A stretch of DNA of 64,000 bases from Clusia tigrina (Eukaryota > Arthropoda > Insecta > Diptera > Clusiidae). Both the position numbers and the translations under genes were made by a program. The notes below the pieces were generated by a model. That model made no database searches, was not told where the DNA came from, and was given only the letters and a program-made list of their open reading frames with translations. The stretch lies in assembly GCA_920105625.2 (NCBI GenBank), contig OV050031.1, positions 227,712,194 to 227,776,193 on the forward strand, read 5' to 3'. Shown one piece after another: positions 7,300 to 62,185 of the stretch; position 1 is the stretch's first letter, and every line of letters begins with the position of its first letter.

Positions 7300-7796
7300 G
7301 TGCGTTCTTGACCAAACCTAGTCAAGAGCACCGAGAGAAAAATAAGTAGTCTAATGCAGTATTGCAGGTATAGATGTTCAGATTAACTCTGGTTTATTTA
7401 GTGGCTCGCTGGCTCTTTTATATCATTTAAATTATATTGTTATCTTATTCTATCTAACATAACCTATCTTATTTCTATTAGTTACAAATCATATTTCCAA
7501 AATTAATCTCAAATATCGGATTACCGATATTATTCATTGACGAATCATCGTCTTTGTTTATATTGTTGAATTTGAGTGCAAGTGCATGGGCAAAGTCACT
7601 GCACTGTCCAATATGCATACGACGCTGCAATATAGGCAGCGCATGTCAATGCACCACCAAATGTGCGTATCTAGCGTATATGGGAATTGAGTGCAAGTGC
7701 ATGCGATACGCTATTGTCAGTTCGTTTGCATAGGCGAATTGCTACGGTGCTTGTGACGATGTGTGGTCGTCAGTGTACACTAGTGAAGTACACTAC
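7300..7796 (-). mobile_element. Probable long terminal repeat inserted in a non-LTR RT
   Basis: On the minus strand the segment starts TGTAGTGTACTTCACTAG exactly where the RT reading frame at 7797 breaks off. It then carries two copies of a GTGCAAGTGCATG-type motif, followed by a TATAAAAGAGCC box and AATAAACC about 25 bp downstream. That TATA-to-polyadenylation spacing is typical of the R region of an LTR. The far end near 7300 (CTCTCGGTGCTCTTGAC) is uncertain. No internal LTR-element coding sequence adjoins it, so it would be a solo or truncated LTR. Confidence 0.45.
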
Positions 7797-8220
7797 AAAT
7801 GTGGTATCCAAGGTTCTTTACTTTTTCAACAAATTTTAGGTTAGTATCATTGAGTGAAATTGTTGGTATATCAGAGGAAGGGTAACCAGACTTGGAAATC
7901 GGGAGGACATATGATTTTTGGGAGTTGAGCTTCAGCCTATTAGCTTTAGTACATGCTGCTATTATGATCAAGTGTTCGTTTACCTTAACACATAAATCAT
8001 CAATGAGACCAATAGGTCTGGACAAATACAATTGAAGGTCATCAGCATATGCATGCATGGTAACATGACAACACTTACTGAGCATATCATCTACGCACAA
8101 TGTAAATAAAAGTGGACCAAGCACTGAGCCCTGAGGCACCCCACAGGTTAAATTACTGAACCCAGACACACATTTTCCCTTGCAAAATGGCGTTCCAATT
8201 CTAAGAGAATACAGAACTAT
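7780..8220 (-). pseudogene. Non-LTR reverse transcriptase, palm part (distal piece)
   Basis: The minus strand reads TCGVPQGSVLGPLLFTL, then HAYADDLQLYLSRP, with the catalytic YADD intact, and later LKLNSQKSYVLPIS and VKNLGYHI. These are RT motifs B, C and D/E of a non-LTR element. This stretch is open for 129 codons. It is cut at 7796 by LTR-like sequence and at 8220 by a BEL fragment. The upstream part of the palm resumes at 8576 on the same strand. Lineage within I, LOA or related clades is unresolved. Confidence 0.85.
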
Positions 8221-8569
8221 TTGGATCCAGTCTCTATAAATAATGAGATTTTGATAAATGCGAATGCCGAGACGTCATTGCTGGGACTGAGATGGGATAC
8301 CACGACTGATGAGTTCACATTGAAGGTACAGTTGTTGCCAACAGTTCCCATTTCGGCTTGGATGAAGCGATTAGTTTTAAGTGTCATAGCGTGGATTTAT
8401 GATCCAGACGGATTAGTGGCACCATTTGTGGTTAGAGCGAAGATCCTGCTTCAACGCATTTGGGAAGTGAAAAGCACGTGGGATGCAGCATTGCCGGATG
8501 CACTGCTCAATTCATGGCAAGATATACGAGTATTCTCTGAAATCTCCCTTTGCGACCTTTCAACCAAGT
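8221..8569 (+). pseudogene. BEL/Pao pol fragment inserted inside an RT gene
   Basis: The plus strand encodes LLGLRWDTTTDEFTLKV, then VLSVIAWIYDPDGLVAPFVV, then RAKILLQRIWEVKSTWD and a final LLNSWQDI. This is the conserved RT-to-RNase H connection of BEL/Pao Pol. The fragment has no LTRs. It is flanked by AACTAT on the left (8215-8220) and again on the right (8570-8575), so it looks inserted with a 6-bp duplication or by microhomology. A close relative, clearly the same family, lies at 29937-30130. Confidence 0.85.
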
Positions 8570-8575
8570 AACTAT

Positions 8576-8700
8576 GAGGGTTAATAATGAGACAGAGTTG
8601 CTTAAGCGGCCCATAGACGATACAACATGATCATCCACAGAATCGAATGCTTTAGAAAAATCTAACAGACAAAGCTGGTTCAAGTGTCAAATAACTCTCT
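8576..8700 (-). pseudogene. Non-LTR reverse transcriptase, proximal piece
   Basis: The minus strand encodes LCLLDFSKAFDSV, the RT motif A with its catalytic Asp. It is in the same orientation and frame as the palm part at 7780-8220 once the intervening BEL fragment and one AACTAT are ignored. The 5' end is lost near 8700, close to the SINE at 8740. Confidence 0.75.
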
Positions 8701-8739
8701 AATGTTATCAAATGACTCTCTAATGTTAGCCTATATTTT

Positions 8740-8845
8740 AACAACAGCAGTGGAGGAGCAGCTGCAGGATTTGAACGTGCGACCCTCGGGGTGTGAGTCT
8801 AGCATGCTTACCACTAGGCGACAGAGAGCGGGTGTCTTAAATTAG
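8740..8845 (-). repeat. tRNA-headed SINE, truncated
   Basis: Reversed, the sequence reads CGCCTAGTGGTAAGCATG, then GAGGGTCGCACGTTCAAATC, a box B with T-arm-like pairing. It matches the head of the copy at 34991. The body is missing. An (ATT)n run at 8846-8876 lies just beyond the head and probably belongs to a neighbouring copy. Confidence 0.7.
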
Positions 8846-9104
8846 TATTATTATTATTATTATTATTATTATTGATAGACATTTTGGAAGATTTTATACA
8901 ATTTATTTGGACAAGCCACTGTGCTCATCTAAGATCTTTCAATGAAGGAACATTTTTTTTCTGAAGTCTTGGAAATCAACAACACACCTACTATGAACCT
9001 TCACAGGAGTCGATCCTGGGCTTTTAGTTATTGGGTTGTTAGTTAAGTACTATTCTAACTGCAGGTGGTGAATTTATACTGCTAAGCCTGTCTGAGTACT
9101 GTCT

Positions 9105-9190
9105 CAGTCTACCACTCTCTGAACAACTGTCTCTTTATTATTTCTCTTTCAGTCTACCGCTCTCTGAACAACTGTCTCATTATAACCTAT
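9105..9190. repeat. 45-bp direct tandem duplication
   Basis: CAGTCTACCACTCTCTGAAC recurs 45 bp later with one change (ACCG for ACCA), followed by AACTGTCTC in both units. The flanking sequence is AT-rich, with no coding motif. Confidence 0.85.
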
Positions 9191-9529
9191 CTTTCTTTGT
9201 AAAATTCCTCTCATCCATTGATTATTGAATTAAGTGTTAATTTAATTTTAAAAATTAAACTTATTAATTATTATAAATCGATTTTGAAATCTCCTCATCC
9301 ACATCTCATATTGAAGAAATATCGAGGGATTTTGGAAATCTTGTAAAGTGTTTTCTTGCTGATGGTGAAGAGGAATTTTAGATACACCAAAAGCCATTCA
9401 GTTCAAGTGGAAATTTTACCCCTTATTTGATTTGAGTGTTTATGGTTCGAGCAGAGATTAGACACAAAAAACAGACGCAGACGAACGTGTACTATCATCA
9501 GGGACTTTGGGAAGTGTGTGTATGTTCAT

Positions 9530-13284: not shown

Positions 13285-13518
13285 GTAGATCAGCGTTTAA
13301 ACCAGATAATACAGAGAAAAGGCAAAGCAGCGAAATAAAGCAGATGGACGTTGTACATGAATCCACTCAAAATCGTGGTGAATCCACTCAGAATCGTAGT
13401 GAATCCACTCAGAATCGTGGTGAATCCACTCAAAATCGTGGTGAATCCCCTCAGAATCATGGTGTGTCCGCTACGGACGCTGGCAGCGAAAAATACTTTC
13501 TTTTCTCTGTGATCTTTG
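13285..13518 (+). CDS. Short ORF with five heptapeptide repeats
   Basis: A frame open from about 13285 has its first ATG at 13344 and stops at 13518. After MDVVH it contains five near-identical 7-residue units, consensus ESTQNRG, encoded by 21-bp units. The last unit is ESPQNHG. The frame then runs VSATDAGSEKYFLF and stops. Beyond that stop the same frame goes on into an RTE-like C-terminus, so this may be the upstream part of that retrotransposon protein or a fused repeat. No family match is known to me. Only the repeat and the open frame are observed; function is unknown. Confidence 0.35.
13359..13463 (+). repeat. 21-bp tandem repeat, five units
   Basis: Units begin at 13359, 13380, 13401, 13422 and 13443. 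The consensus is GAATCCACTCA(A/G)AATCGTGG plus T. Substitutions are few and keep the frame. Confidence 0.95.
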
Positions 13519-13777
13519 GCTAAAACATTCAGCGACTATGCTGGCTGGATCATGTCCATCGTATGGATGAAGAAGCTCCGGCTTAACAGGTATTCGAAGC
13601 GAGAGCCGATGGTCGACGACGAAGACGGAGACCGTGCCTTCGATGGATAGACCAAGCTGAGGAAGCACTAACTACGCTTGGTGTAATTAATCAGAGAAGG
13701 CTCGCGCGAAGCAGAGGCGCCTGGCGAGAGCTGCTTCAATCGGCCGTAACCCGACCACGGGTTGTAATGGTCATCTA
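13519..13777 (+). pseudogene. C-terminal end of an RTE-like retrotransposon protein
   Basis: The plus strand reads LCWLDHVHRMDEEAPA, then a stop codon, then an Arg-rich stretch and CLRWIDQAEEALTTLG, ending ARSRGAWRELLQSA and a stop near 13777. The pattern (R/C)WL(G/D)HVHRM...RWID...LG...WR is the usual C-terminus of several RT-endonuclease retroelements. Two stops break the frame, and the RT proper is missing. A second partial copy of the terminal sequence (GGTTATAATAGCCACCTAAG with AAGAAGAA) lies at 13902-13931. Confidence 0.65.
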
Positions 13778-28205: not shown

Positions 28206-28374
28206 TTAATTATATCTCCAAGAGGTGGGGTAATGATTGCTAGCTACAGAGGCCTTCGACTCGAAGAGAAAAGTATTTTTTAGAAAGAGCCATTTTGGAG
28301 ACCAAGTCCGTGGCAGGATTTGAACTTGCGACCCTCGGGGTGTGAGTCTAGCATGCTTCCCACCAGACCACAAT
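28206..28374 (-). repeat. tRNA-headed SINE
   Basis: Reversed, the copy starts TGTGGTCTGGTGGGAAGCAT, has GGGTCGCAAGTTCAAATCCT (box B), then CTTTTCTCTTCGAGTCGAAG and GCCTCTGTAGCTAGC, ending near TATAATTAAC. The head and the middle CTTCGAGTCGAA block agree with 34991-35178. It directly abuts the 3' UTR of the family D copy. Confidence 0.75.
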
Positions 28375-29936: not shown

Positions 29937-31230
29937 CGAACTGGATAAAGCGATTAGTTTTAAGTGTCATAGCGCGGCTTTATGATCCAGACGGATTAGC
30001 GGCGCCGTTTGTGGTTAGAGCGAAGATCCTGATTCAACGCATTTGGGAAGTGAAAAACATCGGATGCTGCATTGCCAGATGCACTGCTCAATGCATGGCA
30101 AGAGATATTCTCTGAAATCCCACAATTCGAGCGTCTCCCCATACCATGCTGGTTTCGCTACGCGCGGCATTTCAATGTGGTTTTGCATGGCTTTGCAAAT
30201 GCGTCTCGAGGGTTTATGTGTGGTCATAAAAAACGAAAAAAACCCATTTCTCGACAGGTACTGGCCAAATGTAGGGTTGCGCCATTAAAAGCAGAGACCG
30301 TGCCCCGCCTCGAGCTCCGTGCTGCCACCTTACTCAGTGAATTGATGCCATGTGTTCAAGCCGATTGCGTGGATGAACATAACATACAAATGAATTTCGT
30401 CATCTGCTGGTCCGATTCTACGGTGGTCTTGTGTTGATGAAAACGCAACATTGGAGGCCAAAGATCATCTGAGTGTCAGTGAACTGGATGAATCATTAGC
30501 ACATGGGATAAGCAGTAGCAATATGACCATTTCAGGACTGATATCCAAGCATTGCAGCAGAACGGCGAGAACAATATGTCAGCCAAAATACCGTGTTTAT
30601 CGAATGCAATAGGAGCACTGACCCTATTCATGCAAGACGTATGCATGGTCGATTGCAGAATGCGGACTTACCAATCGATCAGTGTAATCCTATTATAATA
30701 TCGGGAAAGGGGCATCTGGCCTGGATGTTGACTCATTCGACGCACCTTAACCCGGGCATCTGTTAATCGGTGAATCCTTGTTCCCAGCTCTGGGAGAGAA
30801 AGTTCCGCCAGCACGGCTGGAGAACTGTCTAACCTATTTGCAAACATGGCAACAAATAGCCCAGAGATTCTAGAAATTATGGAGCGACAGCCACATAGAT
30901 GAATTACGGCAGTGCACCAAATGGCGACATGACAAAATATGAAGGAGGGCGATTTAGTCGTCATTAAAAAGGAAGCCACACCACTAACACTTTGGATTAT
31001 GCCACGTGTAATTGGAGTGCACCCGGGCACAGATGGATCGATGCGGAATGTCACACTCTGGACTGGACGGGTACAATCACTCCACTCATACAGCGATTAT
31101 GTTTGCTACCCGTAGAACCAGTTGAGCCAAAACTTCACATGCCACGCAAAGACCAAATATCATTTCGTCGTCATTGGAGAACACGCCATTTCACTAGTAA
31201 TACAAATTCCTTTGAGGACTCTCCATAATG
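29937..31230 (+). pseudogene. BEL/Pao pol remnant: RT end, RNase H, integrase end
   Basis: Plus-strand pieces occur in the order expected for BEL Pol. RLVLSVIARLYDPDGLAAPF and RAKILIQRIWEVK come first, then AWQEIFSEIPQFE. VAPLKAETVPRLELRAATLL and ICWSDSTVVL (RNase H Asp) follow near 30290-30430. Next is the integrase N-terminal zinc-binding end CNPIIISGKGHLAWMLTHST near 30690. It is joined directly to the integrase end GHLLIGESLFPALGEKVPPA and a KLWSDSHIDELRQCTKW segment. Last is GDLVVIKKEATP...VIGVHPGTDGSM near 30955-31050. The integrase catalytic core (DDE) is deleted between the zinc-binding part and GHLLIG. Frameshifts and stops are frequent. Confidence 0.85.
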
Positions 31231-31300
31231 CCGACCTAGGCCGCAACTCCACCCTCGCAGCGGTTAAATGCTACATGAGTGGAGTTGCGGCCTAAGTCGC
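31231..31300. repeat. 22-bp inverted repeat at the 3' end of the BEL copy
   Basis: CCGACCTAGGCCGCAACTCC+AC (31231-31252) is matched in reverse by 31279-31300 with two mismatches, leaving a 26-base loop. Sixteen central pairs are perfect. Confidence 0.85.
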
Positions 31301-61757: not shown

Positions 61758-62185
61758 TTCGTCAGCGCAATTATTATTGTTATTATTATTATTATTTATA
61801 TATTTACTATAATTAAAATTATAATAAACTAATAACTTATAAGCAATGGAAAGCTGTTCCGTGCTGTTCAGTGTTCGAACTTTTTGAGCCGTCTGTGTAA
61901 TGGGAAGCCATCTTGTATATGGGAAGAGGTTTTTAGTTTCGAGGAATAGTTGACCAAAGGTGTTGGCGGAGGTGTCGTTTTTGGCATAGGATGTGAGGCT
62001 GGTTATGAAAGTATCCGGGTATAGGTTCCATGGAGTGTAGGTTTCAGTGATGGTAATGGGTGTGTTGCAGTTGATTTTCAGATCATTGGTTGCGTCTAGT
62101 AAGCCGACCAAGCCCGGGTCAGGATTTGAGCCTGAGTGTGAGTCCATCATGCTTACCACCAGACCACAGAGGGCGGCCATTTACA
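61758..62185 (-). repeat. Long tRNA-headed SINE (~430 bp)
   Basis: Reversed, it begins GGCCGCCCTCTGTGGTCTGG and TGGTAAGCATGATGGACTCA, with box B in CAGGCTCAAATCCTGACCCG, so it has the same head as 34991-35178. A different body of about 330 bp follows, starting CTTGGTCGGCTTACTAGACG. It ends in AATAATAATAATAACAATAA (61760-61800), an (AAT)n tail like that of the short SINE. A 151-codon frame crosses it only because of base composition. Confidence 0.75.

What the first reader, a model, noticed from the sequence alone, without database searches (positions are those of the whole stretch)
7780..8700. BEL pol fragment with a 6-bp direct repeat splits an RT gene whose frame closes when it is removed
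Seen: the minus-strand RT has motif A at 8600-8690 and motifs B/C at 7900-8170. Between them sits a 349-bp plus-strand BEL pol piece flanked by AACTAT at 8215-8220 and 8570-8575. Ignoring the piece and one AACTAT, the RT frame runs through without a stop. The inserted DNA has no LTR, so this is not a normal BEL insertion. Inference: an internal fragment was captured, perhaps by template switching in a retrotransposition intermediate or by repair-coupled insertion.
Basis: partly seen in the sequence, partly recalled or inferred. Interest (0 to 1): 0.75.

Follow-up and report, generated by a model that had tools for sequence, protein, structure and literature searches.

The report
Retrotransposon fragment patched into broken LINE
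A 365-base internal piece of one mobile element sits inside an old copy of another, with seven bases lost and no flanking duplication, which looks like a scar of DNA-break repair rather than a transposition; such scars are a known kind of event.

Summary
Copies of both parents in the same assembly fix the joints. The host is a minus-strand LINE reverse-transcriptase fragment. I read 27 of the 39 listed sister copies at the site; all 27 run uninterrupted across it. The BEL/Pao pol piece is window 8180-8544 (365 bp, plus strand). BEL copies run through its left edge (4 of 4) and its right edge (5 of 5). The LINE lost 7 bp (ACCCTAA). No target-site duplication, LTR or poly-A/T was found. One base (C) is shared at one edge; one (T, 8545) fits neither parent.

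AACTAT is native to both parents, 35 bp inside the BEL piece and 24 bp beyond the other joint in the LINE: a coincidence, and so is the frame closure. A second foreign patch lies 30 bp away: 57 bp (an internal piece of a dispersed repeat plus a MITE end) in place of 67 bp of LINE. The closest BEL relative is 21.4 kb away in this window.

Best reading: repair of a double-strand break captured internal BEL DNA, a known kind of event.

The parts
7798..8179 (-). LINE RT piece, 3' side (motifs B and C). 93-94% identical to the 39 other copies listed. 8179 (C) can belong to LINE or BEL
8180..8544 (+). Internal BEL/Pao pol fragment, 365 bp (from some 50 residues after the RT YMDD motif into Peptidase_A17), no LTR. 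88% to copies at C1:19.65-19.79 Mb, 92.1% over 178 bp to the second copy in this window
8545..8545 (.). Single T matching neither parent (LINE A, BEL C): added or mutated base at the joint
8546..8575 (-). Ends in the right-hand AACTAT
8215..8220 (+). Left-hand AACTAT: native BEL sequence, 35 bp inside the fragment
8570..8575 (+). Right-hand AACTAT: native LINE sequence, 24 bp beyond the right joint
8576..8604 (+). Second patch, first half: internal piece of a dispersed repeat R (1104 first-look candidates, 40 scored, all 40 matched including the query's own place). The joint with LINE shares AT (8574-8575)
8602..8634 (+). Second patch, second half: one terminal inverted repeat of a MITE (515-558 bp in the 8 of 10 loci where both ends were found). 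Meets R at TTA and LINE at a shared AT (8633-8634)
8635..8763 (-). LINE RT piece, 5' side (motif A). Protein similarity to about 8763, DNA match to L003-L006 to 8759
8687..8728 (-). 21-bp tandem duplication in the LINE; L003-L006 are 14 bp shorter here
29942..31128 (+). Second, longer, decayed copy of the same BEL family, same orientation, 21.4 kb away; candidate donor or its remnant

Best explanation
An old LINE fragment suffered a double-strand break in its RT region. The break was healed by end joining that captured or copied a 365-bp internal piece of a BEL/Pao retrotransposon, losing 7 bp of the LINE and leaving no target-site duplication. Shown: the two joints, the uninterrupted sister sites, the missing 7 bp, the absence of LTR, tail and duplication at the joints, and the native origin of both AACTATs. 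Inferred: that a break came first, and that end joining or synthesis-dependent repair did it. Inferred with less certainty (about 0.6): the donor was the chromosomal BEL copy 21.4 kb away, then more complete than now. Inferred with low certainty (about 0.35): the 57-bp repeat/MITE patch 30 bp away belongs to the same event.
For: Sister LINE copies read TTTCCC-ACCCTAA-CCCTTTG. TTTCCCACCCTAACCCTTT is contiguous in 27 of 27 at up to 3 substitutions; with the next five bases added it matched in 25 of 27 at up to 2 errors, the other 2 (L046, L047) leaving the LINE right after CCCTTT; 0 of 27 carry BEL. The other BEL copies read GATTCGAG|CTTGCAAAATGG at the left edge (4 of 4) and CTGAAATC|CCACAATTC at the right (5 of 5). 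In L010 an open frame runs from an RT YMDD motif straight through the left edge. Poly-A/T of 5 or more within about 15 nt of the edges: none. BEL sense is plus while LINE sense is minus. Of 24 other BEL-related places found in 1.214 Gb only 5 exceed 85% identity; one lies 21.4 kb away and is the closest (92.1% against 87.8% for L010). A randomly placed copy would lie that near with a chance of about 3.5e-5 (rough). Deletions of 1-15 nt and fillers of 1-68 nt at joints are typical of repair-mediated duplications in interrupted TEs (PMC2671141, passages). Yeast Ty fragments are captured at breaks by NHEJ (PMC10802722, section 4).
Against: No donor of near-identical sequence was found: the nearest differs at 14 of 178 sites and lacks the left half of the piece. 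The grouping of the two window copies rests on 3 shared derived sites against 1 and 1. The 21.4-kb distance exceeds the 5 kb of most repair duplications in PMC2671141. A break cannot be seen directly. No related species with the same locus was available. Copy counts from the genome search are lower bounds by the tool's own statement.
Confidence: 0.82

Rival explanations
1. A variant of the best explanation: the captured DNA was a fragment of BEL cDNA (linear reverse transcript), ligated into a break by NHEJ, not a copy of chromosomal DNA.
For: Ty cDNA fragments are captured at breaks in yeast (PMC10802722). The piece has no LTR, as a random cDNA fragment would.
Against: Its nearest relative found is a decayed chromosomal copy 21.4 kb away. 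The neighbouring patch contains a MITE end, which is DNA that is not reverse-transcribed.
Confidence: 0.2
2. A whole BEL element inserted normally and later deletions removed both ends with their LTRs.
For: BEL elements do insert in other elements (recalled); the second copy in this window is also truncated.
Against: Two deletions would each have had to stop inside BEL on one side and within a few bases of the insertion point on the other: only 7 bp of LINE are gone. No duplication is left, and the edges lie inside pol.
Confidence: 0.04
3. Template switching by the LINE reverse transcriptase during target-primed reverse transcription joined BEL RNA to LINE RNA.
For: Such chimeras exist for other LINEs (recalled, not looked up).
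Against: BEL sense is antisense to the LINE, so a normal BEL RNA cannot give this product; the enzyme would also have had to return to the LINE 7 nt on. There is no tail. No other copy of the chimera appeared among the 40 candidates scored of 409.
Confidence: 0.04
4. Assembly artefact joining unrelated repeats.
For: Repeat-rich region; reads were not available.
Against: The LINE flank (24-26 of 382 differences from the 7 sister copies compared, which differ among themselves by 0-4) and the BEL piece (8-12% from relatives) are both private, diverged sequence; misjoins usually happen at near-identical repeats (recalled).
Confidence: 0.03

Closest known systems
Repair-mediated duplications found as interruptions of transposable elements (Pace et al. 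2009, PMC2671141; abstract and passages seen)
   Same: An interrupted TE with contiguous sister copies, an insert copied from elsewhere in the genome, a small target deletion, a filler base, no tail; chimeric two-donor inserts are also reported (20 instances there).
   Different: The candidate donor is 21.4 kb away and 8% diverged, not within 5 kb; the insert is itself an LTR-retrotransposon piece with several relatives, whereas that study kept inserts found at one other place; described there for vertebrates.
Capture of numts or Ty cDNA at double-strand breaks by NHEJ (PMC2567098 abstract and section 8; PMC10802722 abstract and section 4)
   Same: An internal fragment of foreign DNA fills a break, often with 0-1 bp overlap at the joints and little target loss.
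   Different: Here the source is a BEL/Pao element and may be chromosomal.
Complex insertions of polymerase-theta end joining in Drosophila (PMC2895639, abstract and passages)
   Same: Several template pieces joined at short microhomologies.
   Different: Those inserts are short (average 5.5 nt with wild-type alleles there), with templates mostly in flanking sequence.
BEL/Pao LTR retrotransposon insertion
   Same: Sequence is BEL pol.
   Different: No LTR, no target-site duplication; an internal fragment only.

Membership tests
Repair-mediated duplication / filler DNA | Inserted sequence interrupts an element whose other copies are contiguous at the site | tested here: met
   27 of 27 inspected LINE copies (of 39 listed) are contiguous across the joint; 2 leave the LINE right after CCCTTT and 2 others 17 nt into the right flank
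Repair-mediated duplication / filler DNA | Joints show small deletion, filler or microhomology | tested here: met
   7 bp lost, 1 bp shared, 1 unassigned base
Repair-mediated duplication / filler DNA | Insert matches another place in the same genome | tested here: met
   5 other places above 85% identity; none near-identical
Repair-mediated duplication / filler DNA | Donor close by (mostly under 5 kb in PMC2671141) | tested here: inconclusive
   Nearest relative 21.4 kb away, 92.1% identical, lacking the left half
BEL/Pao element insertion | LTR at both ends | tested here: not met
   Edges lie inside pol, where the other BEL copies read through
BEL/Pao element insertion | Target-site duplication | tested here: not met
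   Empty site shows loss of 7 bp; AACTAT native to both parents
LINE-mediated (TPRT) retroposition | 3' poly-A or tail and target-site duplication | tested here: not met
   In the empty LINE site the word lies 24 bp beyond the joint; in BEL it lies 35 bp inside the piece

The most novel reading that the evidence does not exclude
One multi-template repair event in the germ line left a chain of patches in a single LINE copy: BEL pol (365 bp), a 30-bp LINE island, an internal repeat piece joined to a MITE end (57 bp in place of 67), and perhaps the 21-bp tandem duplication 52 bp further on. Several unrelated donors would then have been sampled within 550 bp. The repeat/MITE joint occurs nowhere else in the assembly at up to 3 mismatches, as expected if it was made here; a lost or masked donor is not excluded.
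Probability: 0.3. Interest if true: 0.45.

Novelty: new member of a known kind. Interest (0 to 1): 0.3.

Why it matters
It is a clean worked case in which sister copies of both parents resolve the joints of a repair scar to within a base or two, and a warning: a 6-bp repeat plus an open join looked convincing and both were chance. If the neighbouring patches belong to one event, interrupted LINEs in this 1.2-Gb genome could be used to measure how often break repair samples several donors in its germ line.

Tried and rejected
Rejected: AACTAT as target-site duplication. Rejected after first favouring it: TCCCTT (8176-8181 / 8545-8550) as a duplication. It looked better placed (chance 2.7%) but the empty site shows loss, not duplication. 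AATAATGAGA (10 bp; 1.4% of random zone pairs share 10 bp or more): the left copy is native BEL and the right copy belongs to the repeat in patch 2; taken as chance. I first read 8576-8632 as diverged RT in a shifted frame; DNA comparison showed it is foreign. I also first read 8173-8178 as BEL from a recalled motif; it is LINE.

Led nowhere: protein searches with the two BEL pieces (none at E 0.001); viral contigs and genome contigs: no relative confirmed; NCBIfam only a group II RT model far below its cut-off; PDB none; tRNA scan none; paper search for BEL motif strings 0 hits; paper searches (0 hits; 2 hits, one relevant, PMC2671141) found nothing on such scars in insects. These are narrow term searches and do not show absence from print.

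Full report
What was checked. The window carries a minus-strand reverse-transcriptase piece (PF00078, 1.8e-14) and a plus-strand BEL/Pao pol piece (PF05380, 9.4e-15). AACTAT occurs at 8215 and 8570. In zones of that size around two edges, shared words of 6 bp or more occur 1.8 times on average in random pairs of zones from this window, and 82% of pairs have at least one; the repeat is not significant by itself.

Host element. A protein search with the RT piece gave 880 relatives (120 listed). Their SYL..RSQ block (39 of the 120 usable) as a profile ranks window 8576-8544 (HSYLVERSQRE, minus strand) third of 127,936 six-frame positions, behind positions in two other RT-like regions of the window.

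Empty site. The assembly (1.214 Gb, 666 contigs) holds many copies of the LINE: 409 candidate places, 40 scored, 39 of them other copies, 93-94% identical to the window. I read 27 of the 39 at the joint. TTTCCCACCCTAACCCTTT is contiguous in 27 of 27 at up to 3 substitutions. With GAGAC added the site matched in 25 of 27 at up to 2 errors; the other two leave the LINE right after CCCTTT (L046, L047), and two more leave it 17 nt into the right flank (L007, L008). 22 of 27 run on through AACTATTTAACAT. None of the 27 has BEL or MITE sequence there. The window has TTTTCCC, then foreign DNA, then CCCTTTG: 7 bp are missing and nothing is duplicated.

Donor family. The BEL piece has 24 related places elsewhere, a lower bound: four near-identical copies at C1:19.65-19.79 Mb and one in this window at 29942 exceed 85% identity; 19 lie at 69-77%. 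The four C1 copies carry other sequence on both sides of the fragment's limits, and the 29942 copy agrees with them beyond the right limit. In L010 an open frame leads from an RT YMDD motif through the left limit, so the copy is BEL on both sides of it; further stops and shifts follow inside that copy. The fragment is therefore 8180-8544, with 8179 (C) common to both parents and 8545 (T) matching neither. The left AACTAT is present in the BEL copies printed, L010 and L012. No poly-A/T of 5 or more lies within about 15 nt of either edge. The LTR of this family was not identified; that none is present rests on both edges lying inside pol.

Nearest relative. Over the shared 178-180 sites the fragment differs from the 29942 copy at 14, and from L010 at 22; the 29942 copy differs from L010 at 19. 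Derived sites shared by the two window copies number 3, against 1 and 1 for the other pairings: weak but in the same direction. The two lie 21.4 kb apart in the same orientation; for random placement the chance is about 3.5e-5 (rough). The 29942 copy now begins in the middle of the fragment, so it would have to have been longer then.

Second patch. Between the LINE island 8546-8575 and the LINE piece from 8633/8635 on, 57 bp (8576-8632) replace 67 bp of LINE. The first half is an internal piece of a dispersed repeat: 1104 first-look candidates, 40 scored, all 40 matching and all extending past the joint position; the 12 printed all continue upstream of the joint. So this is not a normal end of that repeat. 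The second half is one terminal inverted repeat of a MITE: 33 of the 34 other matches hit this end. Both ends were found in 8 of 10 loci, 515-558 bp apart; in 4 of these 8 I see matching TTA or TAA flanks by eye (a PIF/Harbinger-like label is recalled). The joints share AT with LINE on both sides. The repeat/MITE joint occurs once in the assembly, here, at up to 3 mismatches, and the control pattern not at all. A third scar, a 21-bp tandem duplication, lies at 8687-8728. Whether these scars are one event or several is open.

Mechanism. Integration of BEL by its own integrase would give LTR ends and a duplication; neither is there. Target-primed reverse transcription would give a tail and a duplication, and both RNAs would have to be in the same sense; BEL is antisense to the LINE. 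What is left is capture or copying of DNA at a break: a 7-bp loss, a 1-bp overlap and one odd base fit the joint classes of repair-mediated duplications in interrupted TEs (deletions 1-15 nt, fillers 1-68 nt; PMC2671141, passages) and of numt capture, where 65% of the fusion points had 0-1 bp overlap (PMC2567098, section 8). Polymerase theta in Drosophila makes inserts from several templates (PMC2895639, passages), which would suit the second patch. The MITE end suggests that at least that patch came from chromosomal DNA. Capture of BEL cDNA, as for Ty in yeast (PMC10802722, section 4; a preprint), cannot be excluded for the first patch. Of PMC3118150 (BEL/Pao survey) I saw the abstract and outline only.

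Verdict. The possible link of the patches is the part most likely to interest a specialist, and it needs related genomes to test.

Noticed in passing
window 8764-8843: tRNA-like repeat (by eye) abutting the 5' end of the LINE piece; other copies at 28313-28372, 35059-34979 and 62136-62176. ARAGORN calls no tRNA.
   Followed up: partly
window 7780-7797: The 39 listed sister LINE copies start matching at 7798 (38 of 39) or 7800 (L004), so the LINE piece seems to lack its own 3' side and to be an internal fragment itself; the neighbour was not identified because searches did not complete.
   Followed up: no
window 8868-9141: Diverged (about 71%) copy of the part of L029 next to the repeat that supplied half of the second patch, with a 45-bp tandem repeat at 9104-9195.
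   Followed up: partly
window 29942-31128: Second BEL pol copy, 5'-truncated, with gaps relative to the C1 copy (matches 29941-30454, 30460-30751, 30750-31128).
   Followed up: partly
L007, L008, L046, L047: LINE copies that leave the LINE within about 20 bp of the same site; probably 5' truncations, alike in pairs, so perhaps two insertions copied by duplication.
   Followed up: no
window 31232-31299: 68-bp stretch matching its own reverse complement at 79% (imperfect inverted repeat) just after the second BEL copy.
   Followed up: no
L029 181-1427: Locus of repeat R that also matches window 13317-13519 several times, so further copies of neighbouring repeats lie elsewhere in the window.
   Followed up: no
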